From an uncultured Planctomycetaceae bacterium (lineage in GTDB: Bacteria; Planctomycetota; Planctomycetia; Planctomycetales; Planctomycetaceae), in assembly GCA_903921605.1 (NCBI GenBank), contig CAIXQV010000412.1:1-19370 (forward strand): DNA of 19,370 nucleotides, given 5' to 3'. The first letter of the stretch is position 1. Each line of letters opens with the position of its first letter. Under the pieces are notes generated by a model. That model had not been told where the DNA came from, ran no database searches, and saw only the letters and a list, made by a program, of their open reading frames with translations. Positions 4,147 through 19,370 of this stretch are shown here, piece after piece. The translations under genes and the position numbers were made by a program.

Positions 4147-4355
4147 GAAACAATCATTCTATAGACAGATAAGATCGGCGAAACAATCGCATATTCGCGA
4201 GAAGCAGTGCTCGCGCAGCCCTGTCCCCGGGTGGTCAACTGCCCTGGATGGCATATCATGCACCGAGAAGGGAGGATTGCGATTCAACCGGTCAGTATTC
4301 GCATGATATCTCGCTTTTGCCTCAATCCAAGTCAGTGTCTTCGGAGTCGATTTTC
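4147..4355. promoter_or_regulatory. Divergent promoter region between methyltransferase and UbiD genes
   Basis: These 209 bp must contain the start signals of both divergent genes. Visible elements are a 9-bp direct repeat GAAACAATC at 4147-4155 and 4180-4188 (33 bp apart, near three helical turns) and an inverted repeat CGCGAG/CTCGCG at 4196-4201 and 4210-4215 with an 8-nt spacer. Both are plausible protein-binding sites, but neither is proven, and I could not fix promoter boxes by eye. Confidence 0.4.
4343..4346 (+). promoter_or_regulatory. Ribosome-binding site deciding the UbiD start
   Basis: GGAG sits 9 nt before the ATG at 4356. The reading frame is open upstream to 4248, but the extra 36 codons are Ser/Arg/His-rich and unlike any UbiD N-terminus. 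The sequence from 4356 (MGYRNLQECVRDLERHGQL) matches the usual UbiD beginning. Confidence 0.75.
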
Positions 4356-6203
4356 ATGGGTTACCGCAACCTTCAGGAATGTGTACGTGATCTGGAACGT
4401 CACGGACAACTCATTCGCCTGAAGTGTGAAGTCAGCGCGAATCTGGAAGCGGCTGAGATTCATCGCCGAGTCTGTGAACGCGGTGGCCCGGCGATTCTGT
4501 TTGAGAACGTCGCGGGTTGTCGCTTTCCGATGGTCAGTAATCTATTCGGGACAATCGAACGTGCGAGGTTTATTTTTCGCGATGCCATGAAAGGCGTGGA
4601 GACGCTTGTTCAACTCAAAAAGGATCCAGCCTGGCTGCTCAAGCATCCGGAGCACATTCCCGCAGCCCTGCGAACATTGATCTCCATGCGCTGCGCGACT
4701 CGCAGCACTGGTCCGGTGATGGAATGCCGGACGACTCTTCAGGAGTTGCCTCAACTGAAATGCTGGCCGAAAGATGGCGGAGCTTTCGTGACCTTGCCGG
4801 AAGTGTATTCTGAACATCCGGATCGTCCTGGCTACATCCATTCCAATCTGGGGATGTATCGAGTTCAGATCAGTGGCAATGAATATCAACCCAACAAAGA
4901 AGTCGGGCTGCATTATCAGATTCATCGCAGCATCGGGTTTCATCATGCTGCGGCCATCGCCAAAGGAAAGCCTCTGCGAGTCAACATTCTTGTTGGTGGC
5001 CCGCCATCAATGGCCGTGGCCGCCGTGATGCCGCTGCCCGATGGCATCCCTGAAGTCGCCTTTGCCGGCGCGCTGTCTCGTCATGCTGTGCGAATGGTGC
5101 GTCAGGGAGCCAACCCCATGATCTGTGCAGAAGCAGATTTCTGCATCAGCGGTACGATCGATCCGGATCGTCGTTTGCCCGAGGGACCTTTTGGCGACCA
5201 TCTTGGCTACTATAGCCTGACACACGATTTTCCCGTTGTGAATGTCGACGCAGTGTATCATCGCAAAGATGCTATTTGGCCATTTACGGTGGTTGGTCGT
5301 CCGCCGCAGGAAGACACAATCTTTGGGGCGTTGATTCATGATCTCACGGGCCCAGCGATTCCAGCCGTGTTGCCCGGTGTTCATGCTGTGCACGCCGTCG
5401 ACGCCGCCGGAGTTCATCCGTTGCTTCTGGCGATCGGCAGCGAACGATACGTGCCGTATGCTTCAGAACGACAGCCTCAGGAATTGTTGACGAATGCCAA
5501 TGCGATCCTTGGGCAGGGACAATTGTCGCTCGCTAAGTATCTGCTGATCGTCGCGAAGGAAGATAATCCGAAACTGGACATTCACGACATCGGAGAGTTC
5601 CTGCAGCATCTTCTGCAGCGAGTCGACTGGACTCGCGACCTGCATTTTCAGACGCGAACAACCATCGATACTCTGGACTACACCGGCAGCGGATTCAACG
5701 CTGGCTCAAAGCTGGTCATCGCGGCCGCAGGCAATGCCAAACGAACGCTGGCGACAAACATTTCTTCCGACCTTAAGTTGCCGGATGGCTTTTCGAAACC
5801 TCATGTCTGTTTGCCCGGGATCATGGCCATTCAGGGACCAAAACATAACGGAAAGCCGTACGAGGATGATGGCCACGTCGAGCGGTTCTGTAAGGAACTC
5901 TCCGAGGCCCATACTTCGACTCTTGACGGCTGGCCATTAATCGTCGTTGTGGATGACAGCGAGTTCTGTGCGAACACGCTGAATAATTTTCTGTGGATGA
6001 CGTTTACGCGAAGCAATCCTGCGTCAGACGTTTACGGAATCCACTCATTCACGGAAGCGAAGCATTGGGGCTGTCGCAGCTCGCTGGTCATCGATGCCCG
6101 AGTGAAACCGCATATGGCTCCGCCTTTGGAAACGGACCCCGAGATTACTCGGCGAGTCGCCAAATTGGCGGCTCCTGGCGGACCTTTGCACGGGCTGATT
6201 TAG
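4356..6203 (+). CDS. UbiD-family prenyl-FMN-dependent decarboxylase
   Basis: The 615-residue product is a UbiD-type reversible decarboxylase, which uses prenylated FMN and a divalent metal to remove a carboxylate from an aromatic or unsaturated acid. The family signature EGPFGDHLGYYS lies at 276-287; E276 and D281 correspond to the two acidic residues flanking GPFG that act in catalysis in characterised members. Other family landmarks are HSNLGMYRVQ near 162-171, GGPPS near 214-218 and EADFCISG near 259-266. The length exceeds the roughly 490 residues of E. coli UbiD; longer forms are common outside Proteobacteria. No UbiX-type prenyltransferase for cofactor synthesis lies in the window. Planctomycetes usually make menaquinone by the futalosine route, where a UbiD homologue (MqnL) decarboxylates an intermediate, so a quinone role is plausible but not shown; aromatic acid metabolism is the alternative. 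The gene appears monocistronic. Confidence 0.88.
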   Translation: MGYRNLQECVRDLERHGQLIRLKCEVSANLEAAEIHRRVCERGGPAILFENVAGCRFPMVSNLFGTIERARFIFRDAMKGVETLVQLKKDPAWLLKHPEHIPAALRTLISMRCATRSTGPVMECRTTLQELPQLKCWPKDGGAFVTLPEVYSEHPDRPGYIHSNLGMYRVQISGNEYQPNKEVGLHYQIHRSIGFHHAAAIAKGKPLRVNILVGGPPSMAVAAVMPLPDGIPEVAFAGALSRHAVRMVRQGANPMICAEADFCISGTIDPDRRLPEGPFGDHLGYYSLTHDFPVVNVDAVYHRKDAIWPFTVVGRPPQEDTIFGALIHDLTGPAIPAVLPGVHAVHAVDAAGVHPLLLAIGSERYVPYASERQPQELLTNANAILGQGQLSLAKYLLIVAKEDNPKLDIHDIGEFLQHLLQRVDWTRDLHFQTRTTIDTLDYTGSGFNAGSKLVIAAAGNAKRTLATNISSDLKLPDGFSKPHVCLPGIMAIQGPKHNGKPYEDDGHVERFCKELSEAHTSTLDGWPLIVVVDDSEFCANTLNNFLWMTFTRSNPASDVYGIHSFTEAKHWGCRSSLVIDARVKPHMAPPLETDPEITRRVAKLAAPGGPLHGLI

Positions 6204-6764: not shown

Positions 6765-6959
6765 ATGTCGTTACGAGATTTCATCCGCCAGACCAAAATG
6801 CTGATCGAGCATGGTCTGTACGTGACGCGGGGAACAGCGAATGGGGGCGTCTATGAACGCCCACTGGAAGCTGCGCGGCTCGAAGAACGCATTCTGTTCA
6901 GCGCTTCTGCGATGGCTCCGGTTGCAGCCGCGAGCTTGCTGATGCCGGAGATGCATTGA
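6765..6959 (+). CDS. LEPR-XLL-like leader peptide ORF of the giant protein
   Basis: This short ORF encodes 64 residues: a basic, amphipathic start (MSLRDFIRQTKMLIEHGLYV), then RLEERILFSAS at about 39-49 followed by an Ala-rich stretch. The LEERILFSA core matches the LEPR-XLL-type motif found at the N-terminus of very large planctomycete surface proteins, where it is presumed to be a sorting or export signal. Normally the motif is fused to the big protein. Here the frame stops at 6957-6959, and the giant ORF begins in the -1 (equivalently +2) frame at 6956. Either a single-base indel split one gene, or the leader is translated separately and coupled to the next ORF through the TTGA overlap. 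GGGG at about 6752-6755 is a possible weak Shine-Dalgarno. Calling it genuine coding sequence is well supported by the motif; its relation to the next ORF is the open point. Confidence 0.72.
   Translation: MSLRDFIRQTKMLIEHGLYVTRGTANGGVYERPLEAARLEERILFSASAMAPVAAASLLMPEMH
6947..6950 (+). promoter_or_regulatory. Possible ribosome-binding site for TTG start of the giant ORF
   Basis: GGAG lies 5 nt before the TTG at 6956, inside the end of the leader ORF. It would permit translation restart at the overlap and argues that the giant ORF might be translated even if the leader frame is truly broken. Other in-frame starts follow at TTG 6968 and GTG 6971. Confidence 0.4.
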
Positions 6960-9900
6960 CGTCGGCCTTGGTGTCGATCGGCGATGGTGCGACAATCCAG
7001 ACAGACCAGGGAGGGCTCACGGACCAGCAGTTTCTTGATCTTGTGGCCGACACATTGTTGCCGGGGCCGTCATTATCTCCAGGAGCTCAGGGTGGCGACT
7101 CGCCGACGGTTGATGATCCCGCCACGGTCGATGACGCTGCGACGAATACTCAGAACTCCATAGTGAGTCTGACTCAGGATTCAAAAACCGAACTGGTTTT
7201 TGTGGATACGGGGATCGCGGATTACGAAGCCATCGTCAACGACATACGTTCGTCAGCCAGGCAAACGCGTGCCGTTCAGGTCGTCCTGCTGGATGCCACT
7301 CAGGACGGGTTGAAGCAAATCAGCCTCTACATGTCCGGCGTCACGCAAACCGTCGATACGGTGCATTTCATCACTCAAGGTACAGATCGAGCCCTGACGC
7401 TGGGTTCGACATGGATCGACGTGAACTCGCTGGCGTCAAACCAGAACGAGTTTGAACAATGGCGAGATGTCTTGTCACCGGATGCGGACCTGGTGTTCTA
7501 CGGTTCTGACCTTCAGGATTCGGTCGATGGTCAGCGATTGCTGACAGAATTGAGCAGTCTCACCCGGAGTCATGTGTCGGTCAGTGGAAATCCGAGCGAC
7601 TTCTCAGATCCTGATCTGAGTACCGCTTCCAATGCTTTGAATGCCAGAAATGTGATTCTGGTTGACCGTAACCTTGATGACAGTGATCTTCTTATTGATG
7701 CGGCTCGGTCCGGTTCCGTCGTCTTCGCGTATGATGGGACGTCTGAATCTGCTTTGAGCGTCCTCGATCGAGTTGCTCAGTGGGCTCAACAAAACCAAAC
7801 AGAGATCCAGTCACTTTCGATTCTGTCGCATGGTACTTCGGGCGGATTCGAGCTTGGTAATCAGTGGATTACAACATCATCTCTTATCAGCACAGCGGAT
7901 GACTGGAAGCAGATCTCCCAATACTTCGTTGAGGATGCCGACATCTACATCCTGGGCTGTAACGTTGGCGCCGAAATTCGCCAGGGTCAGCAACTGGTTG
8001 ATCAGCTGGCTATTCTGACAAGGACCGACGTTTTTGCCTCAAGCGATATCACCGGCGTAGGCGGCGACTGGCTGCTGGAGCTTGGTTCTGCCGGGAATCC
8101 GGCCCCGGAGAATGCTGTCCTTGCGAACGTCTTCAATGTGGATCAACTCAAGTCCGCGAATGTCAGCCTGGCTTGGTACAACGCCAACTGGAATTATCGT
8201 CAGACTGTGACTATCAATGAATCGATGGTGACCGGGACCTCGAACCTGAGCAACTTCGCGGTTCTCGTCAGCGTTACAGACCCCGGGCTGAAGACGACAG
8301 CCAACGGAGGAAATGTGGGACAGGCCGACGGTGGCGATTTTGTCTTCACATCCTCAGACGGGACGACAAAACTGGATTACCAGATCGAAAGCTATGATGC
8401 CACCACGGGGACTTTGTTGGCCTGGGTTGAAGTCCCGACACTCAGTCACAATGTCAATACATCTCTGTACCTTTACTACGGAAATGCAGCCGCTGCCAAC
8501 CAGTGGAACGCTGCAGGCACGTGGGAAACAAACTACAAGGGAGTCTGGCACCTGGGCTCCGATTATCTGGACAGTACTGCTACAAGAAACGACGGCACCA
8601 ATTCCGGTAGTACAAATTTTGCCACCGCGAAAATTGGTTCCGGAGATAACTTCGATGGCATCAGCGATTATGTCTCTACGACCAGCAGCGAAGCGAAGAC
8701 TGCTGATGATTTCACGATTTCCCTGTGGTTCAACGCCGATGCCACGGACTATGCTCACCATCTGATCTGGCAGGGGGAAACAGGCGGAAACGGATTTGGG
8801 GATCCAGGGTTCGGCGGACATCCTGAGATGAATATTTCCTTAGGAAGCGTAAATACGGCCGGTACCACATTCTCGAATAACCTATCCTTTTTTCTCGGGA
8901 GGGACGCAGCAGATTCAAACGCGATAAATATCTCAACCGCGTTTACAGATACCGCTGGCTGGCATCACGTCGTGGTTATCGTCAGTAACATGAGCACTTC
9001 GCCAACCGCCACGATGTACCTCGACGGATCAAGCCTGGGTACAGACACTGGGACAACGACTGAGACCAGTCGAACGTCCTGGAATACCGACATGAGATTT
9101 GGGCGGCCAGGAGCCGCAGAACGCTATTACGACGGTGGCCTCGATGAGGTAAGGCTTGCGACCACCACTCGCACCGCCGATTGGGTGCTAACGGAATACA
9201 ACAACCAAAACAATCCAGGCACATACGTCACGCTGACCTCTGAAGAAGGTGCCCCGCTAATCACCAGCAACGGCGGCGGGGCGACCGCTTCCGTCTCCGT
9301 CTCCGAAAATTCAACGGCCGTCACGACAGTGACCGCCGCCGATCCTGGTGCACCTCCGCAGACACTGGTCTACTCAATCAGTGGTGGTATGGATGCCGCG
9401 AAATTCACAATTGACTCTGGTACAGGCTTGCTGACATTTGGCTCAGCTCCGGATTACGAATCTCCGACGGATTCCGGGGCGAATAATGTTTACGAAGTGA
9501 TTGTGCAGGTGTCCGATGGAACGCTGACGGACGCTCAATTCATTGCGGTGACGGTCACGAACGTCAACGAAAATCCTATCGCAGTCGCTGATAGTTACAG
9601 CGGGTTCTACCAAGGTGATACCAGTGCATCGGGCGCGCCGGGTGTTCTGATCAATGATAGTGATCCGGATGGAGATGTACTCACCGTCTCGCTTGTCAGT
9701 GGCCCTGCGTACGCGACGACATTTACGCTGAACGCTGACGGATCGTTCACGTATCTTCACGACGGCTCAGAGAACTTTTCAGACAGTTTTGTGTACAGCG
9801 TGAGCGACGGTCTGGGCGGCACAGCCACCGCAACGGTCTCCATTGTCATCACGCCGGTCAACGATGATCCGGTTCTGATCGACGGTGGTACCGAGTCACT

Positions 9901-12900
9901 CAGCGAGGGCGGCACGACGACTCCGTTTCTCGGTGTCGGCACAGTCACAGACCCCGACAGTCCTGACTTTGATGGCGGAGAATTACTCGCAACGATCACA
10001 AGTGGCATTGAATCGGGAGATGTGCTGGCTCTTGCCAATGTTGGCGGCGTAACGACATCGGGAACGGATGTGTTGGTGGGTGGAATTACGGTTGGCACGG
10101 TGTTCGGCGGAGCGGCCGGAGTCCCGCTGACAATTACTTTCAATTCCGATGCCACGCTGGCTCGAGTTCAATCCGTTTACGAGTCGGTCGCGCTGACTTC
10201 GAACGTCGATGTCCCGGTGTTAGGCATTCGAACGATCTCGGTGACATTGACTGACGGAGACGGCGGCACCAGCAACACCGCAACAGGAATCGTTGATTTT
10301 GACACCGCGATTAATGATACACCGGTCGTCACGCCTTCAGCACCGCTGATTGTTCTCGAAGACACCTCCGGAGTTATCAGCCTTTTCGTGACCGATCCCG
10401 ACGCAGGATCAGGGAGCCTGAAGGTCACTTTGAATCTCAGCAATGCTTCCGGAACAATCACGCTGGGATCGACAACAGGCTTATCGTTCAGTATTGGCGA
10501 CGGCACGTTGGACACGTCGATGTCCTTCACGGGGACTTTGACCGATCTGAATAACGCTCTGGCTTCGATCACTTATGCGCCCACGACAGGATTCAATGGA
10601 GCGGATGCTCTTCAGTATGCGATCGACGATCAGGGTAACTCAGGAAGCGGCGGAGCGCAGACGGCGAATGGTAATGTCTCCCTGACCGTGGATTCTGAAA
10701 ATGATGCCCCTGCACTGTCCGGAGCGAATAATCTCACGGCCATCGACGAAGACAATGTCTTCAACAACGGAACATTGATCTCAGATCTGATCACTGGCCA
10801 CGTGACAGACCCTGATCCCGGCACTTCGTATGGAATCGCTGTTACGGCAGTGAACAATTCGAATGGGGCCTGGCAGTATACGATCGACAACGGATCAAAC
10901 TGGCTCAGCTTTGGGGGCGTCTCCGCGTCGACCGCGCGATTGCTGACCGCTGACGCAATGACGCGGGTTCGTTTTGTTCCGAACGCCAACTACAACGGAA
11001 CTATCAACAACGGAATTACGTTTGCCGCGTGGGACGGCACTAGCGGTGTGGCCGGCAGCACGGCGAATATTGCTCCGACGACTTATCAAGATCAATTCAA
11101 CACAAACTCTTATTCGAATAACAACGGAACAGGCAACTGGACGGGATCCTGGGTTGAAACCGACAACAATGGCGGTGGTGCGTCCAACGGGCTGATTCGC
11201 ATCAACAGTGGCGTTCTGGAAGTCAAATCTGACCGCAACAACGACAATGTGTATCGTGAGGTGGATCTAAGTTCCGCGACGTCGGCAAGTGTTTCGTTTT
11301 CCTATCAAAATTCGATTGGCGGCGGTGCCGGAGATGTCGTTCGATTTCAGGTTTCGAGCAACGGTGGTGCCTCGTATACCGATCTGGCGACGTTTGATTC
11401 CGGAACAAATACGGGCTCAGGAGATCTGAGTTTTGACATCGCTAGTTACATCAGCAGTAACACTCGGGTTCGCATGATCGTCACGAGTACCGACCAGACC
11501 AGAATGGTCGCGTTTGATAACATTCAGATTGCGGCAACGTCCTTGACCGGCGGCACAACGGCGTTCAGCACTGCAACAGCCAGTAGTTCGCTGATTGTAA
11601 ATTCTGTCAATGACGAGCAGGTCTTTGTCGCGGGCCCGGGACAGAACTTTGCGGAAGGTTCCACAGGCGACGTTGTCACCACGGACACACTGCTCACGAC
11701 TGATGTTGATAATTCCAACAACGAGTTGGTCTATACTCTTAGCATTCTGCCGGCCCAGGGCGTGCTGAAGCTTAACGGGATCACGCTCGGTTCCGGCGAT
11801 ACATTTACGCAGACTCAGGTCAATGCCGGGCAATTGACATACGATCACGACGGAACAGAGGGAGCGACCGATAGCTTTTCCTTCTCAGTCGATGACGGCC
11901 TGGGAACAGACACCGGAGTTCTCGTTAATTTTCAAATCAACGGCATTAACGATAATAGCCCGGTGATCACCAGCAATGGGGCTGGCCCAGCGACAGGGAT
12001 CAGCGTGTCGGAAAACTCCACCGCGGTCACAATAGTTCAGGCTACGGACACCGATCTGCCTGCGGAGACGATCACTTACAGCATCGTGAGTGATGTAGAT
12101 TCACCGGACGCCGCCAGGTTTGTGATTGACAGTGCCACAGGTGTTCTGAAATTTACTGCTAATCCCGACTTTGAATCTCCGACGGACTCCAACGGCGACA
12201 ATGTCTATGTGGTGAAAGTACAGGCCTCAGACGGTACGAACACGGACACGCAGTTGATCTCCGTCACGGTCACGGATGTGACTTCCCTGTTCGAGGTCAC
12301 GACGATATCGGACCTTGACGACAGCGGGCTGGGAGCCAGCTACACGATCGAACAACTGCATGCCGCCGGAGGTGGTGCCGACGGTAAAATCTCACTGCGT
12401 GAAGCCATCGTTGCGGCTAACTCAACCGTCGGACTCGATACGATAACATTCAGCATTGCCGGATCTGGTCCGCACTCGATTTCACTGGCATCCGCTCTGC
12501 CCGAGATTACTCAGGCCATCGTTATTGACGGCTGGTCAGAACCGGACTTCGCCGACACACCGGTGATTCAGCTCGATGGTTCCGCGGCTCCTGCGGGTGC
12601 TGATGGACTTTGGATCAGCAGTGGCGGTTCGACGGTTCGAGGATTGATCATCAGCGGCTTCAATGATCGAGGAATCTCCCTGACGGGCGGCGGCGGTAAC
12701 ACCATTGTCGGCAACTGGATCGGTGTGAATGCTGACGGAACGACGGCGAATGGCAACGGTAACGGGATCTTTATTTCGTCGACGGGTAACCTGATTGGCG
12801 GTACGACGACGGCGACACGCAACGTGATCTCCGGGAACACAGTAGGAAATATCGCGATCTCGGGCGCCTCGGCGGTCAGCAATGTGATCTCCGGAAACTA

Positions 12901-15900
12901 CATCGGAACGTCAGCCGATGGAATGGCGTCGATTGCATCCGCTGGAAATGGAATCACCCTGTCTGGAGGTGCGATAGGCAATCAGGTCGGTGGTACAGGT
13001 GCTGCCGGAAACGTGATTGCAGGCTTCGGTAACATCGGAATTGAACTGACGTTCGGCTCTCATGGTAACGCCATTCAAGGCAACCTGCTGGGAGTCAATA
13101 CGACGGCATCAGGAGTACTGACTTCAGGAGCCGTCGGCATCACACTCAACGGTGTCAGCAACACACTGATTGGTGGAACCGCGGCTGATGAGGGGAACAC
13201 ATTTGGTGGCTTTGCCAACACGGCCATCTGGATCCTGGGCGGTGGAACCAGCATATCGGTTCAAGGGAACTTTTTTGGCACCGATGCGACTCAGACCGCG
13301 TCCTATGCCAACGGCGCGGCGATTGACATTTGGAATGCCACCTCTTCAACGATTGGCGGAACAGTTGCCGGGGCGGGAAACATCATCGCTCACAGCACCG
13401 GCAGCGCAATCAAGGTTCTATCGCCGTCAACAGGGATTTCGATCCTTGGAAATTCGCTCTATTCCAACTCCGGCATTGGCATCGATCTTACGGCAGATGG
13501 CGTCACAGTAAACGACGCGGATGACAGCGACACAGGAGCTAACCGCCTCAGCAACTTTCCTGTCATTACGATGGCGGCTCGTAGTGGAGCCACCGTTCGA
13601 GTCGAAGGAACATTGCAGGCAGAAGCTTCCACAGCCTATCGAATTGAGATCTTTGTGAACTCGATTGGCCAGGAACACTCCTCTGGCTACGGAGCCGGGC
13701 AGCGTTATCTGGGCTTTGTCACAGTAACGACCGATGCCGCCGGAAGTGCGTCGTTCAGCACAGATATCACCGCCGCAGTTCTTGTGGGAGAAACCGTTTC
13801 TGCAACTGCGACAGATGCTGCCGGCAATACATCGGAGTTCGGTGCAAATCGAGCCATCGTAATGCCAGTTCCAGTGATTGACCTGGATGCGGATGACAGC
13901 AGCGGCGAAACCGGAGCAGATTTCATCGCCAGCTTTGTCGAGGATGGTAGTCCCGTCAATGTGGTGGATGCTGATGCGATCGCATTCGATACGGACACAT
14001 CAAATCTCAATAAGTTGACGGTCACGATCACAAACTTGATTGACGGCTCCAACGAAATTCTGACCGCCGACACCAGTGGTACGTCGTTAAACGCCAGTTA
14101 CGCAGGCGGCGTGCTGACGATCACCGGAACGGCCAGCGAAAGCGATTATCAGCAGGTCCTGCGGACAATCACATACGACAACACGTCACAGAATGCGGAC
14201 AACACAACTCGCATTCTGACCATCACAGTTGAAGATGGTGTCTTTGCCAGCAACACGGCCACATCACGCATTCAGATTCTGACATCCAACGATGCTCCGA
14301 CGATTCAGGTTAATGCTTTAACAATCGCTGAAGGTGGTACGGTCATTCTCACCGCCGCTGATCTGCTGTCGACGGACGCTGAACAGTCTGCCGCACAGCT
14401 CACGTACACAATCAGTGGCGTTTCGGGTGGACAGTTCGAGCTCGTCGCCATCGCCGGCATTGCAATCACCAGCTTTACTCAGGCGGACATCAACAGTGGA
14501 GCTGTCCGGTTCGTGCACGACGGAAATGAAGCCGCCCCATCTTATGACGTCACGGTCAGCGATGGACTCTTGAGCAACGGCCCACAATCGGTTCTTGTCA
14601 CGTTCACGGGAGTGAATGATTCGCCGGTCATGAATTCCGCGACGTTCTCGGTCGTTGAGAATTCCACTTTGGGAACAACCGTGGGTTTCGCAACATCGAC
14701 GGATTCCGATGCTGGCGATACTCGGAACTATTCGATTCTGTCCGGCAATATCAGCGGAGCGTTTGGCATCAATGCGGGTTCAGGTGAGATCGTTGTGCTG
14801 AACTCCGCCGCTCTCGATTATGAAACGATCACATCATTCAGCCTGACGATTCAGGTTTCAGACGCTGCTGGTGCCTCCAGCACTGCAATTATTACGATCA
14901 ACGTCACGAACGTCAGCGACAATTCGGTATCGGCACTCTCTGATACTGATGCAACGAACGAGATCATCGCCGAGAATTCCACCAACGGAGCGAATGTCGG
15001 CATCACGGCTCTGGCCACCGATGCAGATGCTGCGGACTCGATCAGTTACTCGCTGACGGATGATGCTGGCGGGCGATTTGCGATCGATAGCGTCACCGGA
15101 GTTGTCACGGTTGCCAACGGTGCGGCTCTGGATTACGAAACCGGCACATCGCACAATATCACGGTCCGCGCGACGTCAACAGATGGCAGCTTCTCGACGC
15201 GAACATTCCTGATTCAGCTGACAGATGTCAACGAGAGTGGCGTCTCCGCGATCAGTGATATGAATGCCTCGGCCAACACTGTCGCCGAGAACAGCAGCAA
15301 TGCAACCACTGTCGGCTATACCGCATTTGCAGCGGATCCTGACAGCACTGACACCATTTTCTATACACTGGACGACAATGCTGGCGGGCGTTTCGCGATC
15401 GATACCTTCACAGGGATTGTCACCGTGGCGAACGGGCTGCTGCTGGATCGAGAAGCCGCAGCCGCGCACACGATTATTGTCCGAGCAACCAGCACTGACG
15501 GTTCGATCGCTGTGCTTTCGGTCGATATCAGTCTGATCGATGTCAACGAGTTCGCGATCAGCACCCCGGCAGATCTTGATGCAGCAGCCAATACCGTGGC
15601 GGAACTGTCTCTGCAGGGAACGTTGACAGGCATCACCGTTTCCGCCAGCGATGCGGATGCGACAACAAATGCCATCGCCTATACACTGGATGACAACGCC
15701 GGAGGACGATTCCAGATCGATTCTGTTACTGGTGTGATCACGGTCGGGGCCACCGCTATCGATTATGAAGCCGCGACCAGCTACTCCGTGACTGCTCGAG
15801 CCTCCAGTGCGGATGGATCTTCAAGAACATTGTTGATTACGATCAACGTGACTGACGTCAATGAGTCCGGCGCGTCAGCGGTTACGGATACGAATGCGGC

Positions 15901-18433
15901 CGTGAATCAGGTTCTGGAGAATGCCGTCTCGGGAACTCTGACGGGTATTACAGCTCACGCCACCGATCCGGACGGAACAGACACGATCACTTACTCGTTA
16001 GACAACAATGCTGGCGGACGATTCCAGGTTGATTCCGTAAGTGGTGTTGTCAGTGTTGCCGATGGCACGCTGCTGGATTGTGAACTGGCGGCTTCGCATT
16101 CGATTATCATTCGAGCAACGTCGACAGACAGCTCGTTCTCGACTCAAACATTTATCGTAAACCTTGGTGATGTCGATGAATTCGACGTCTCAGCGATTAC
16201 TGACTCGAACGTCAGCGTCGATGGCGTCAATGAAAATTCAGCCAACGGCACGATCGTGGGCATTACGGCCAACGCCTTCGACAGTGACGTTTCCAGCAAT
16301 ACCATCACTTGGTCGTTGGATGACAATGCCGGCGGTCGATTCCAGATCGATGCCAGTACAGGAATCGTGACTGTCGCCAACGGAGCATTGCTCGACTTCG
16401 AAACCTCCGCAAATCACACAATTATCGTTCGAGCCACTTCAGCGGATAGATCTGCGAGCACTCAGACATTCCTGATTTCGCTGCTGGATACGAACGATGC
16501 TCCGCCAGTGATCACTCCCGGTCAGCAGTTCAACGTCTCTGAACTGGCTGGCGTTGGGACAGTCTTCGGCACAGTCGCAGCGGTCGATCCGGACGGAGTT
16601 GGAACACTTCAGGACTGGACGATTTTTTCCGGTAACACGGATGGCATCTTTGCGATCAATCCAACGACAGGTGCTTTGCGAATCACCAACAGCGCTATGT
16701 TGAATTTCGAAACGACGGCGACGTATACCCTGACATTGTCAGTGGGTGACGGCACCGCCACGTCGCTGCCACAGACTGTTCTTATTCGCATCATGGACGG
16801 GAACGAAGCTCCTGTTTCGATTGTACCAACTCCTCTGTCGATTGATGAAAATACAGCAGCCGGAACAATCGTGGGCTCAGTTTCAGCCTCAGATGTCGAT
16901 GCCGGCGATGTGCTCTCGTATGCCATCATGGGAAGTATCACCGCTTCACCGTTTGCGATTGATGCAGCAACCGGAGTTATTCGAGTTGCTGATTCATCGT
17001 TGCTGGATTTTGAAGCTCGCCAGTCGATCACTTTGCAGATTCAGGTCACAGACGTCGGCGGTTTGACAGCAACAACGTCAGTGGTCATTTCTCTGAATGA
17101 CGTGAATGAAACCCCGTCTCTGATCAATCTCGCAGGTGGTACGGTTCAGGAGAATCGCGGTGCCGGAACATTCGTCGGGCAACTCAGCGCTGTTGATCCT
17201 GATGCCGGAGAAGTTCTGACCTGGGAACTTGTTGATGATGCCAACGGGACATTCGTGGTCAACTCCTTAACAGGCCGTATCGATGTAGCAGCTGGAGCAG
17301 TTCTGAATTTTGAACAGATGGCTACGTACCGTATCGCTGTCGATGTCACCGACAGCGGGGGCCTGACGCATCAGCAGACCTTCACCATTCGTCTTCTTGA
17401 TGTCAATGATGCTCCGATTGCGGCGAGCGATCTGATTCCCGGGATCCAGTTGACCTGGATTGAAGTCCTGACGCCCGGATTACTCCTGAACGACTTCGAT
17501 GAAGACGGAGATGCATTACAGGCCGTGCTGGTATCGACGACAGCCAATGGCGTTCTGGTTCTGCGAGCAGACGGTTCTCTACTTTACTCTCCAAACGGTG
17601 TTTTCTCCGGCATCGACACGTTCGTCTATTACGTGACTGACGGTTTCGCAAACAGCGCACCGGTAACGGTGACAATCAACGTGGCTGCTGCTGTGGGTGG
17701 TTCGTCTGGTGGTAGTTCTGGAAGTTCAGGAGAAACCAGCGATTCGACATCAGGCGCTTCAGGCGGCGATACCACGACTGACTCTACGGATTCGAGTGCA
17801 GATGGTGGGGACGAGATCACTGTCGTAACGACGACTCAGTTTTTCGCGGCACCAGCAGTACCCGCGGATCGCTCCGACAAAGCGGCAACACCAACGGCTC
17901 CCGTCGCTGAGCCAATTACAGAAAGCGGTCCTTCAGCGTCCAATAACGAAAACGTCGCGATTACCGGCGAACTCATCGCGTCAGTCTTTGTGAGCGACTT
18001 CTTTGTGAATACTCGCAGCGAACGCATTAAGTCGGTAACCAGCGAATTCGCTCAGGCGGCTGTCTTTGGCGGTATGATGATGGATACCGGTGTGCACAAT
18101 GCGCTGGTATCTCTCAATCTCTTTACGATTGATCGACTGATTCAGCGAGTTGACGAACCGACAATTTCGGAACGCGAGGAGTTGGCTGGCAAGGTTGCTG
18201 TTGGCAGTGCCGCCGTTGTCACAACCTCGTTATCTGTGGGTTATGTGATCTGGATTCTTCGCGGCGGCTCACTGCTGACAACATTTATGTCAGCCTTGCC
18301 AGCGTGGCAGGCCTTTGACCCTCTGCCGGTCCTGCAATCATTCCACAAGGCGACAGAGGAGGATGATGACACGTTGCTGTCCATCGCAACTCGCAAAACG
18401 GTTGATAGCCTGAAGAAAATACGCAAGAGCTGA
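6956..18433 (+). CDS. Giant multidomain cadherin-like surface protein
   Basis: The product is 3825 residues from a TTG; the true N-terminus may be the leader ORF at 6765. Approximate modules are: two DUF4347 copies (79-225 and 232-385); DUF2341 (405-530, beginning WYNANWNYR); LamG-like concanavalin fold (535-760); a cadherin-like domain (766-874); a VCBS/Ig-like domain (875-974); further Ig/cadherin-like domains (975-1550, one interrupted at 1373-1530); a CSPG-type repeat (1552-1668); a cadherin-like domain (1669-1777); a CSLREA-like segment (SLREA at 1813-1817) with a beta-helix of NxIxGN and IGG turns (1778-2305); cadherin-like domains (2306-3490), including five repeats of 105-106 residues; and a final VCBS-like domain with DEDGDAL. 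A Ser/Gly/Thr/Asp linker (about 3580-3621) leads to a C-terminal module with one predicted membrane segment (3747-3767), then RGG and PAW...DPLPVL. Many DxDxD-type calcium motifs are present. I find only two Cys (335, 3042). It is probably exported, anchored at the C-terminus and involved in adhesion or matrix. No LPXTG or PEP-CTERM signal is seen. Confidence 0.85.
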   Translation: MTSALVSIGDGATIQTDQGGLTDQQFLDLVADTLLPGPSLSPGAQGGDSPTVDDPATVDDAATNTQNSIVSLTQDSKTELVFVDTGIADYEAIVNDIRSSARQTRAVQVVLLDATQDGLKQISLYMSGVTQTVDTVHFITQGTDRALTLGSTWIDVNSLASNQNEFEQWRDVLSPDADLVFYGSDLQDSVDGQRLLTELSSLTRSHVSVSGNPSDFSDPDLSTASNALNARNVILVDRNLDDSDLLIDAARSGSVVFAYDGTSESALSVLDRVAQWAQQNQTEIQSLSILSHGTSGGFELGNQWITTSSLISTADDWKQISQYFVEDADIYILGCNVGAEIRQGQQLVDQLAILTRTDVFASSDITGVGGDWLLELGSAGNPAPENAVLANVFNVDQLKSANVSLAWYNANWNYRQTVTINESMVTGTSNLSNFAVLVSVTDPGLKTTANGGNVGQADGGDFVFTSSDGTTKLDYQIESYDATTGTLLAWVEVPTLSHNVNTSLYLYYGNAAAANQWNAAGTWETNYKGVWHLGSDYLDSTATRNDGTNSGSTNFATAKIGSGDNFDGISDYVSTTSSEAKTADDFTISLWFNADATDYAHHLIWQGETGGNGFGDPGFGGHPEMNISLGSVNTAGTTFSNNLSFFLGRDAADSNAINISTAFTDTAGWHHVVVIVSNMSTSPTATMYLDGSSLGTDTGTTTETSRTSWNTDMRFGRPGAAERYYDGGLDEVRLATTTRTADWVLTEYNNQNNPGTYVTLTSEEGAPLITSNGGGATASVSVSENSTAVTTVTAADPGAPPQTLVYSISGGMDAAKFTIDSGTGLLTFGSAPDYESPTDSGANNVYEVIVQVSDGTLTDAQFIAVTVTNVNENPIAVADSYSGFYQGDTSASGAPGVLINDSDPDGDVLTVSLVSGPAYATTFTLNADGSFTYLHDGSENFSDSFVYSVSDGLGGTATATVSIVITPVNDDPVLIDGGTESLSEGGTTTPFLGVGTVTDPDSPDFDGGELLATITSGIESGDVLALANVGGVTTSGTDVLVGGITVGTVFGGAAGVPLTITFNSDATLARVQSVYESVALTSNVDVPVLGIRTISVTLTDGDGGTSNTATGIVDFDTAINDTPVVTPSAPLIVLEDTSGVISLFVTDPDAGSGSLKVTLNLSNASGTITLGSTTGLSFSIGDGTLDTSMSFTGTLTDLNNALASITYAPTTGFNGADALQYAIDDQGNSGSGGAQTANGNVSLTVDSENDAPALSGANNLTAIDEDNVFNNGTLISDLITGHVTDPDPGTSYGIAVTAVNNSNGAWQYTIDNGSNWLSFGGVSASTARLLTADAMTRVRFVPNANYNGTINNGITFAAWDGTSGVAGSTANIAPTTYQDQFNTNSYSNNNGTGNWTGSWVETDNNGGGASNGLIRINSGVLEVKSDRNNDNVYREVDLSSATSASVSFSYQNSIGGGAGDVVRFQVSSNGGASYTDLATFDSGTNTGSGDLSFDIASYISSNTRVRMIVTSTDQTRMVAFDNIQIAATSLTGGTTAFSTATASSSLIVNSVNDEQVFVAGPGQNFAEGSTGDVVTTDTLLTTDVDNSNNELVYTLSILPAQGVLKLNGITLGSGDTFTQTQVNAGQLTYDHDGTEGATDSFSFSVDDGLGTDTGVLVNFQINGINDNSPVITSNGAGPATGISVSENSTAVTIVQATDTDLPAETITYSIVSDVDSPDAARFVIDSATGVLKFTANPDFESPTDSNGDNVYVVKVQASDGTNTDTQLISVTVTDVTSLFEVTTISDLDDSGLGASYTIEQLHAAGGGADGKISLREAIVAANSTVGLDTITFSIAGSGPHSISLASALPEITQAIVIDGWSEPDFADTPVIQLDGSAAPAGADGLWISSGGSTVRGLIISGFNDRGISLTGGGGNTIVGNWIGVNADGTTANGNGNGIFISSTGNLIGGTTTATRNVISGNTVGNIAISGASAVSNVISGNYIGTSADGMASIASAGNGITLSGGAIGNQVGGTGAAGNVIAGFGNIGIELTFGSHGNAIQGNLLGVNTTASGVLTSGAVGITLNGVSNTLIGGTAADEGNTFGGFANTAIWILGGGTSISVQGNFFGTDATQTASYANGAAIDIWNATSSTIGGTVAGAGNIIAHSTGSAIKVLSPSTGISILGNSLYSNSGIGIDLTADGVTVNDADDSDTGANRLSNFPVITMAARSGATVRVEGTLQAEASTAYRIEIFVNSIGQEHSSGYGAGQRYLGFVTVTTDAAGSASFSTDITAAVLVGETVSATATDAAGNTSEFGANRAIVMPVPVIDLDADDSSGETGADFIASFVEDGSPVNVVDADAIAFDTDTSNLNKLTVTITNLIDGSNEILTADTSGTSLNASYAGGVLTITGTASESDYQQVLRTITYDNTSQNADNTTRILTITVEDGVFASNTATSRIQILTSNDAPTIQVNALTIAEGGTVILTAADLLSTDAEQSAAQLTYTISGVSGGQFELVAIAGIAITSFTQADINSGAVRFVHDGNEAAPSYDVTVSDGLLSNGPQSVLVTFTGVNDSPVMNSATFSVVENSTLGTTVGFATSTDSDAGDTRNYSILSGNISGAFGINAGSGEIVVLNSAALDYETITSFSLTIQVSDAAGASSTAIITINVTNVSDNSVSALSDTDATNEIIAENSTNGANVGITALATDADAADSISYSLTDDAGGRFAIDSVTGVVTVANGAALDYETGTSHNITVRATSTDGSFSTRTFLIQLTDVNESGVSAISDMNASANTVAENSSNATTVGYTAFAADPDSTDTIFYTLDDNAGGRFAIDTFTGIVTVANGLLLDREAAAAHTIIVRATSTDGSIAVLSVDISLIDVNEFAISTPADLDAAANTVAELSLQGTLTGITVSASDADATTNAIAYTLDDNAGGRFQIDSVTGVITVGATAIDYEAATSYSVTARASSADGSSRTLLITINVTDVNESGASAVTDTNAAVNQVLENAVSGTLTGITAHATDPDGTDTITYSLDNNAGGRFQVDSVSGVVSVADGTLLDCELAASHSIIIRATSTDSSFSTQTFIVNLGDVDEFDVSAITDSNVSVDGVNENSANGTIVGITANAFDSDVSSNTITWSLDDNAGGRFQIDASTGIVTVANGALLDFETSANHTIIVRATSADRSASTQTFLISLLDTNDAPPVITPGQQFNVSELAGVGTVFGTVAAVDPDGVGTLQDWTIFSGNTDGIFAINPTTGALRITNSAMLNFETTATYTLTLSVGDGTATSLPQTVLIRIMDGNEAPVSIVPTPLSIDENTAAGTIVGSVSASDVDAGDVLSYAIMGSITASPFAIDAATGVIRVADSSLLDFEARQSITLQIQVTDVGGLTATTSVVISLNDVNETPSLINLAGGTVQENRGAGTFVGQLSAVDPDAGEVLTWELVDDANGTFVVNSLTGRIDVAAGAVLNFEQMATYRIAVDVTDSGGLTHQQTFTIRLLDVNDAPIAASDLIPGIQLTWIEVLTPGLLLNDFDEDGDALQAVLVSTTANGVLVLRADGSLLYSPNGVFSGIDTFVYYVTDGFANSAPVTVTINVAAAVGGSSGGSSGSSGETSDSTSGASGGDTTTDSTDSSADGGDEITVVTTTQFFAAPAVPADRSDKAATPTAPVAEPITESGPSASNNENVAITGELIASVFVSDFFVNTRSERIKSVTSEFAQAAVFGGMMMDTGVHNALVSLNLFTIDRLIQRVDEPTISEREELAGKVAVGSAAVVTTSLSVGYVIWILRGGSLLTTFMSALPAWQAFDPLPVLQSFHKATEEDDDTLLSIATRKTVDSLKKIRKS
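7191..8110 (+). other. Tandem DUF4347 modules within the giant protein
   Basis: Two homologous modules lie head to tail. The second has LSHGTSGG with H292 and LGCNVG with C335, then the family's closing GGDWLLELG. The first aligns column by column but reads ITQGTDR (Q141) and YGSDLQ (S184), so both conserved residues are replaced while the 43-residue spacing is identical. The first copy also lacks the GGDW ending. Copy one therefore looks like a degenerate duplicate. Confidence 0.75.
11072..11545 (+). other. Beta-sandwich-like module inserted in an Ig-like domain
   Basis: Residues 1373-1530 (from PTTYQDQF to AFDNIQIAATS) interrupt a domain whose two halves, WDGTSGVAGSTANI before and TGGTTAFSTATASSSLIV after, are normally contiguous in this repeat family. 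The insert is Asn/Ser/Gly-rich, has alternating hydrophobic strands and ends FDNIQI, a common close of jelly-roll or carbohydrate-binding-like modules. I do not recognise a specific family. Confidence 0.55.
12287..13870 (+). other. CSLREA-like segment and parallel beta-helix in the giant protein
   Basis: Residues 1778-2305 start with a CSLREA-type entry (KISLREAIVAANS; the Cys of the name is absent here). Many short turns follow with recurring NVISGN, GNYIG, GNLLG, GNFFG and IGGT phrases, typical of right-handed parallel beta-helices (PbH1). An Ig-like cap with SATATDAAGNTSEF closes it. Such helices in other proteins bind or cleave polysaccharides; no catalytic residues can be assigned here. 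Confidence 0.75.
14921..16498 (+). repeat. Five tandem 105-106-residue cadherin-like repeats
   Basis: The units are 14921-15235, 15236-15550, 15551-15865, 15866-16180 and 16181-16498: four of 315 bp and a last of 318 bp. Each has an AENS-type start, a DxD motif, DDNAGGRFxID at about positions 46-56, TGVVTVANG, LDYE, an RATSTDGS phrase and a closing (T/I)DVNE. Protein similarity is high, but the DNA has diverged, so the duplications are not recent. Confidence 0.85.
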
Positions 18434-18816: not shown

Positions 18817-19370
18817 ATGGCTACTGAAGACGATAATCTGATTCGCAGGATTCGCACCGGTGATCAGAATGCTCTGGCAGAACTGATGGAGCGATATCGC
18901 GGACAGTTGCTGGCCACCGCTTCTCGCAAGATGAGTGATCTGCTGAAACGCAGCGTCGAACCAGATGATGTTGTGCAGGAAGCGGTTACCTATTGCCTGA
19001 AAACTTTCACAGAGATCGACTGCAAAGCTCTGGATCCGATGCCGTGGGTTCATCAAGTGCTCGAACGCAAGATCGTGGATGCTCATCGCCATCATGCGGC
19101 TCAAAAGCGAGCAGCCGACAAAGGCGTGCCGCTCAGTGGAGCAACGGACTCCAGCCCCGGCCTGATTGATCTGCTCATCGCCAGCATCACCTCCGCCAGC
19201 CAGGCGTTTGCTCGCAATCGTCGCGAAGAACGATTGATGATCGCCATGCAGCAACTCACACAGGAACAACAGGACGCCCTGCGTATGCGTTATGTGGAGA
19301 ATCTGCCGTCCAAAGAAATCGCCGACAAGCTCGGCAAATCCGACGGCGCGATTCGAGTCATGCTGACTCG
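18817..19370 (+). CDS. ECF-type RNA polymerase sigma factor, incomplete at right edge
   Basis: The open frame gives 184 complete codons and runs off the right end. Residues 1 to about 75 form sigma region 2: LIRRIRTGDQNALAELMERY, then EPDDVVQEAVTYCLKTF, which corresponds to the core-binding and -10 recognition helices. Residues 136 to the edge form region 4 (LTQEQQDALRMRYVENL, then SKEIADKLGKSDGAIRVMLTR), the -35 helix-turn-helix. There is no region 3 or 1.1, so it is an extracytoplasmic-function type. The segment between (about 90-135) is polar and longer than in minimal ECF factors. No anti-sigma gene is visible, although one could follow off the edge. The first ATG of the frame begins with MATEDDNLIRRI, typical for the family; the Shine-Dalgarno is weak. 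It lies 383 bp after the giant gene and reads in the same direction. The target regulon cannot be told. Confidence 0.88.
   Translation, partial: MATEDDNLIRRIRTGDQNALAELMERYRGQLLATASRKMSDLLKRSVEPDDVVQEAVTYCLKTFTEIDCKALDPMPWVHQVLERKIVDAHRHHAAQKRAADKGVPLSGATDSSPGLIDLLIASITSASQAFARNRREERLMIAMQQLTQEQQDALRMRYVENLPSKEIADKLGKSDGAIRVMLT

What the first reader, a model, noticed from the sequence alone, without database searches (positions are those of the whole stretch)
6765..6990. Leader with LEPR-XLL-like motif is out of frame with the giant protein it should belong to
RLEERILFSAS is encoded in the 6765 frame, which ends at TGA 6957-6959. The giant body starts at TTG 6956 in the -1 frame, overlapping as TTGA. 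In related giant planctomycete proteins this motif is the N-terminus of the same polypeptide. Reading the giant frame backwards gives plausible protein only to about 6932 (ELADAGDALTSAL), and a stop lies at 6854-6856, so the break falls near 6915-6945. I see no X-XXY-YYZ slippery heptamer there, which favours an indel (natural or assembly error) or translational restart (GGAG 5 nt before the TTG) over programmed -1 shifting. If natural, the protein may be silenced, or its sorting leader may be separate.
Basis: partly seen in the sequence, partly recalled or inferred. Interest (0 to 1): 0.7.

Follow-up and report, generated by a model that had tools for sequence, protein, structure and literature searches.

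The report
Frameshift beheads a giant surface protein
A small, probably natural frameshift has cut the short targeting-type leader off an otherwise intact 3,825-residue adhesin-like protein of a planctomycete; relatives have the two parts fused, so this looks like an ordinary, recently broken gene copy.

Summary
A 64-aa ORF (6765-6959) contains a LEPR-XLL-like motif; the 3,825-aa body (TTG 6956-18433) lies in the -1 frame. All eight fetched database proteins that carry this N-terminal segment have leader and body in one frame. The break lies within about ten bases (6924-6934), as a net two-base gain. In a family survey, 79 of 80 readable genes have the leader in frame; the exception breaks at a C5 run. 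So this is no conserved two-ORF layout. No slippery heptamer, homopolymer or unusually stable RNA structure lies at the break. The GGAG and TTG behind the restart idea are coding positions in the fused relatives. A private assembly error is less likely: database clusters whose representatives equal the broken leader stand for 6 and 2 other, shorter contigs, and flanks and body show no other net frameshift. At the same site two congeneric genomes keep only a 140-160-bp relic with a stop inside the motif. Best reading: a recent natural, leader-removing and probably inactivating frameshift. Restart at the TTGA overlap is possible but untested. Ordinary in kind.

The parts
6765..6959 (+). Leader ORF, 64 aa, cut off by the frameshift; the last ~9 codons are out-of-frame read-through
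   Evidence: first 55 residues 55/55 identical to P0004
6876..6908 (+). LEPR-XLL-like motif RLEERILFSAS
   Evidence: NF012209 15.4 bits, below cut-off 17
6924..6934 (+). Interval of the frame break (net +2 bases, equivalent to -1)
   Evidence: relatives run through this point in one frame; codons listed
6947..6950 (+). GGAG, SD-like; part of coding positions in the fused relatives
6956..18433 (+). Giant body ORF, 3,825 aa; its TTG is a possible restart overlapping the leader's TGA
7184..7633 (+). First DUF4347 copy, lacking the His and Cys of the SHG/GC[DN] pair (TQG, YGSD)
7637..8125 (+). Second DUF4347 copy (Pfam stretch 7652-8089), caspase-like fold, keeps SHG and GCN
8327..8527 (+). DUF2341
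9542..17683 (+). Region of cadherin, cadherin-like and Big_9 repeats (11 stretches of PF00028)
4248..6203 (+). Upstream neighbour, UbiD-family decarboxylase (synteny anchor)
18817..19368 (+). Downstream neighbour, ECF sigma factor (synteny anchor, runs off the window)

Best explanation
A single giant adhesin-like gene (LEPR-XLL-like leader, two DUF4347, DUF2341, cadherin repeats) has taken a small frameshifting insertion just after its leader, recently and probably in nature. Ribosomes that start at the normal ATG stop after 64 aa. Any body made by restart at the overlapping TTG lacks the leader, so the copy is most likely silent, or its product is mis-sorted. Shown: the break, the fused relatives, the otherwise open and colinear body, the relics at the same site in two congeners. 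Inferred: natural origin, recency, loss of function, and that the leader is needed for sorting.
For: Of 75 database proteins fetched, the eight that carry this N-terminal segment (P0002, P0003, P0004, P0043, P0046, P0061, P0063, P0071) all have leader and body in one frame, and none begins at the window's restart; the more distant P0007 is fused too. 79 of 80 readable family genes have the leader in frame. Database clusters whose representatives are 100% identical to the broken leader, P0060 and P0062, stand for 6 contigs (longest 2,464 bp) and 2 contigs (longest 10,860 bp), all shorter than this 19,370-base window, hence other contigs. No indels against L001 and L002 in three flanking genes, nor against L002 in a fourth. 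Body colinear with P0004 over 3,826 columns at 92.4% with 3 gap openings and 98-100% identical to P0003 in the 200-residue blocks from 201 to 2400. At the same site in L001 and L002, between UbiD and the sigma gene, only a relic remains, with a stop inside the motif.
Against: No reads could be seen. The clusters pool sequences of 90% identity and more, P0060 has 2 member sequences, the two contig lists may overlap, and their sources are not shown, so the number of contigs with exactly this break and their independence are unknown; at least one other contig has it. Translation across the junction is untested. No DNA of the fused homologues was available, so no dN/dS and no DNA-level proof of the exact change. 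L100 shows that a frame break at this place can sit on a homopolymer, where errors are common.
Confidence: 0.75

Rival explanations
1. Assembly or sequencing error: the strain has one intact fused gene.
For: The body shows no decay; a second family case, L100, breaks at a C5 run, which is where errors occur; no genome is held for the window, so its source cannot be checked.
Against: Database clusters represented by the same broken leader stand for other contigs; no homopolymer of 4 or more at the window's break; no indels in flanking genes against relatives, apart from a compensating one-base pair in the sigma gene against L002.
Confidence: 0.13
2. Translational restart: leader and leaderless body are both made through the TTGA stop/start overlap, and the body still works.
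For: 4-base overlap and GGAG 5 nt upstream; the 11.5-kb ORF is kept open.
Against: GGAG and TTG are coding positions in the fused relatives: the glycine is kept in 8 of 8 and the leucine in 7 of 8 (P0071 has valine), so they need not be an evolved start. None of the 75 fetched database proteins begins at this start. The layout is not conserved (79 of 80 in frame).
Confidence: 0.09
3. Programmed -1 frameshifting joins the two ORFs.
For: The relative frame is -1 in both this window and L100.
Against: No slippery heptamer in 6857-6965; predicted downstream RNA structure is weaker than shuffles (z +1.26; pseudoknots not modelled); relatives need no shift.
Confidence: 0.02
4. Leader and body are two genuine separate genes.
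For: The 64-aa leader is in the database as a predicted protein.
Against: 79 of 80 readable relatives are fused.
Confidence: 0.01

Closest known systems
Frameshift pseudogene / indel mutation class of reading-frame transitions (PMC3711429, passages read)
   Same: Frame transition without a conserved site, homologues encoded in one frame, no recoding signal
   Different: Body ORF is still complete and the break removes only the leader; the same broken leader is also in other contigs
Planctomycete giant genes for adhesin-like cadherin proteins (PMC7717043 and PMC5177795, passages read)
   Same: Great length, cadherin and tandem-95 type repeats, several copies per genome
   Different: This copy has its N-terminal leader out of frame; its 11.5 kb is under the 15 kb that PMC7717043 uses for 'giant' but over the 5 kb of PMC5177795
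LEPR-XLL domain, NCBIfam NF012209
   Same: N-terminal position before a very large protein; LE-x-R-x-L-[LF] core
   Different: Scores below the model's cut-off here (15.4 vs 17); fused relatives match weakly or not at all

Membership tests
Inactivating frameshift (pseudogene class) | Homologues encode the same protein in one frame | tested here: met
   8 of 8 fetched database proteins with this N-terminal segment
Inactivating frameshift (pseudogene class) | Frameshift site not conserved across genera | tested here: met
   79 of 80 readable family genes in frame
Inactivating frameshift (pseudogene class) | Loss of function of the product | not testable with these tools
   needs protein data
Programmed -1 frameshifting | Slippery heptamer X-XXY-YYZ | tested here: not met
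   none in 6857-6965
Programmed -1 frameshifting | Downstream stimulatory structure | tested here: inconclusive
   window 6931-7030: z +1.26, 178 of 200 shuffles fold at least as well; pseudoknots not modelled
Phase variation by slipped strands | Tandem repeat or long homopolymer at the switch | tested here: not met
   no homopolymer of 4 or more; only a two-unit dinucleotide, by eye
Phase variation by slipped strands | Reversible switching in one population | not testable with these tools
   no reads or strain series
Translational coupling | Downstream start close to upstream stop | tested here: met
   TTGA overlap
Translational coupling | Conserved two-ORF arrangement | tested here: not met
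   relatives fused
LEPR-XLL domain NF012209 | Score at or above the curated cut-off | tested here: not met
   15.4 vs 17 bits
Caspase-like fold of DUF4347 | Fold match to solved caspase-like structures | tested here: met
Caspase-like fold of DUF4347 | His/Cys pair | tested here: met
   second copy keeps SHG and GCN; first copy does not. That these are the catalytic residues is recalled; activity not tested

The most novel reading that the evidence does not exclude
The break is an off state of a giant surface protein that circulates alongside intact alleles: the same broken leader recurs in other contigs, a distant relative (L100) breaks at the same place after the motif, and the leader-linker segment looks swapped between alleles. 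Removing the leader could be a repeated way to take such costly proteins off the cell surface, with recombination putting them back.
Probability: 0.06. Interest if true: 0.5.

Novelty: new member of a known kind. Interest (0 to 1): 0.2.

Why it matters
It is a small natural test case for what the LEPR-XLL-like leader does: a near-intact giant protein that can only be made without it. It also shows that this giant gene has decayed at the same site in two congeners, and that orphan leaders enter databases as predicted proteins. If the leader is needed for export, this allele should leave its protein unexported, which is testable.

Tried and rejected
Own-genome search: none held. Scans of GTDB contigs and of IMG/VR with the fused N-terminal profile gave no relative; the UbiD neighbour found the congeners instead. 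A pattern across the break in viral contigs gave 0 matches. A plasmid search gave one weak match in the cadherin part, in a Bradyrhizobium plasmid. Phage records were not searched. A programmed shift was tested and rejected for lack of a slippery site; the RNA fold gave no support either. A search aimed at database proteins beginning near the TTG (only proteins of 330-1,050 aa) gave 14 hits; none of them, nor of the other fetched proteins, begins there. A sequence search of the PDB with the DUF4347 alignment gave two weak hits, one of them 9qpe_G, E 0.016.

Paper searches. Their listings show no description of out-of-frame LEPR-XLL leaders; only passages of PMC9611531, PMC7717043, PMC3711429, PMC6461901 and PMC5177795 were read, and the other listed papers, including PMC10868602 with one mention of LEPR-XLL, were not opened.

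A first, cruder frame survey took the longest open segment of each locus, which was sometimes the wrong ORF; it was replaced and is not counted. Two regular-expression scripts for DUF4347 segments were needed: the first found nothing because its spacing was wrong; the second found 18, of which 16 went into alignment A3 with the two window copies (L094 and L103 left out).

Full report
What is there. A leader ORF of 64 codons (6765-6959) contains RLEERILFSAS. It is followed, with a TTGA overlap, by a 3,825-codon ORF in the -1 frame (6956-18433). The body carries two DUF4347 stretches, DUF2341, 11 cadherin stretches and other cadherin-like domains. NCBIfam's LEPR-XLL model matches the leader at 15.4 bits, under its cut-off of 17. 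Of six fused N-terminal fragments scanned, four match at E up to 1 (best E 0.064; the one score shown is 12.7 bits) and two do not.

Relatives are fused. Three protein searches fetched 75 database proteins (58, 3 and 14). Eight of them carry the segment that follows the break in the window (pattern [TA]SALVS in the first 120 residues): P0002, P0003, P0004, P0043, P0046, P0061, P0063 and P0071. All eight begin with the leader and run into that segment in one frame, and none of the 75 begins at the window's restart. The more distant P0007 is fused as well. The two database entries that equal the broken leader itself, P0060 and P0062, are discussed below. The window agrees with the fused proteins in the leader frame up to 6929 and in the body frame from 6932, so the break is a net gain of two bases in a stretch of about ten.

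The two-ORF layout is not conserved. A profile of the fused N-terminus (A2) was searched in 170 genomes of the family of G001, the genome of the Lake Pavin relative L001; 54 had matches, 89 places in all. 35 of the 89 span motif and DUF4347 in one frame (counted). Of the other 54, 13 were read: 11 in frame (7 by pattern; 4 by eye, of which L113, HDDRLMISA, is marginal), L100 out of frame, L108 at a contig edge. Another 35 were read: 33 in frame (25 by pattern, 8 by eye), L161 and L168 not readable. The remaining 6 were not fetched: four are second DUF4347 copies of a gene already counted, two lie at contig edges. So 79 of 80 readable genes have the leader in frame. L100 is a second, separate break, at a run of five C. 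One of the 35 spanning genes, L091, has a stop inside DUF4347. The profile was built from fused proteins, so the 35 spanning hits are biased towards fusion; the 45 readable genes whose match did not include the motif (44 in frame) are less so.

Natural or artefact. Database entries P0060 (64 aa) and P0062 (53 aa, from an internal start) are 100% identical to the broken leader; their clusters stand for 6 contigs (longest 2,464 bp) and 2 contigs (longest 10,860 bp). All are shorter than this window, so they are other contigs. Limits: clusters pool sequences of 90% identity and more, P0060 has two member sequences, the two lists may overlap, and no sources are shown; at least one other contig must carry this exact break, and their independence is unknown. 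Against L001 and L002 there are no indels in the YTV protein, the methylase or UbiD, and none against L002 in the first ORF (L001 does not reach it). The sigma gene has a compensating one-base pair against L002, and L001 itself lacks about 80 bp of it. The body is colinear with P0004 (92.4% over 3,826 columns, 3 gap openings). One isolated change in otherwise clean sequence, seen again elsewhere, fits a natural allele better than an error.

The same site in congeners. L001 (Lake Pavin MAG) and L002 (titled Candidatus Kuenenia stuttgartiensis, isolate ME-08apr19-56) carry the same UbiD and sigma genes around the site, most of the longer aligned pieces at 87-93% DNA identity, and their genomes fall in one genus group of 18. 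Between UbiD and sigma lies only a relic, 8762 to about 8902 in L002 and 12102 to about 12258 in L001: a leader piece with TGA inside the motif, then a scrap of DUF4347, then, clearly in L002, the last codons of the giant gene. tblastn E-values in a small hand-made set are 3e-8 (L002) and 2.5e-7 (L001) for the leader, 2.4e-4 (L002) and 0.025 (L001) for the DUF4347 scrap; blastn gives 5e-6 for the C-terminal scrap of L002 and no hit for that of L001. The ancestor therefore most likely had the gene here and it decayed in these relatives. L001's genome keeps, elsewhere, two gene starts with leader and DUF4347 in one frame, L081 and L083; both contigs end soon after, so the rest is unseen.

Restart and recoding. 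In the eight fused relatives the glycine coded by the GGAG stretch is kept in 8 of 8 and the leucine coded by the TTG in 7 of 8 (valine in P0071), so these need not be an evolved start. No slippery heptamer; no unusual structure in the 100 nt from 6931. Restart at low level remains possible; its product would lack the leader.

Age. Up to the break the leader is 55/55 identical to P0004 and 44/44 to P0002. The body's first ~120 residues are nearest P0002 (98, 90 and 92% in blocks of 40, against 58, 30 and 78% for P0003); from about 201 to 2400 it is 98-100% identical to P0003, against 68-97% for P0002. Both halves look undecayed, so the break is probably recent, and the mosaic suggests recombination among alleles or copies (inference).

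Verdict. A probably recent frameshifted copy of a known kind of giant planctomycete gene, at a site where the gene has decayed in two congeners.

Noticed in passing
window 7184-8125: Tandem DUF4347: first copy without the His/Cys pair, second copy with it and with a caspase-like fold.
   Followed up: partly
L100 (G049:C12), 1431-1435: A second giant gene with its LEPR-like leader out of frame, breaking at a CCCCC run; natural or sequencing error not decided.
   Followed up: partly
L091 (G020:C39): Fused giant gene with an in-frame TAG inside DUF4347.
   Followed up: no
window 6956-7316 against P0002 and P0003: N-terminal linker is nearest P0002, the following body nearest P0003: mosaic alleles.
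   Followed up: partly
L001 12608-12618: The ECF sigma gene beside the relic has lost about 80 bp in L001 but not in L002.
   Followed up: no
L002: Record titled Candidatus Kuenenia stuttgartiensis lies in the same genus group as a Planctomycetales MAG; the title looks wrong.
   Followed up: no
45 readable loci whose match did not include the motif: By pattern or by eye all 45 have a LEPR-like motif upstream of DUF4347 (44 in frame; L113 marginal): DUF4347 giants of this family nearly always have this leader.
   Followed up: partly
L081 and L083 (G001:C67, G001:C4): Two near-identical giant-gene starts near contig ends with different upstream DNA: probably a multicopy family that breaks assemblies.
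   Followed up: no
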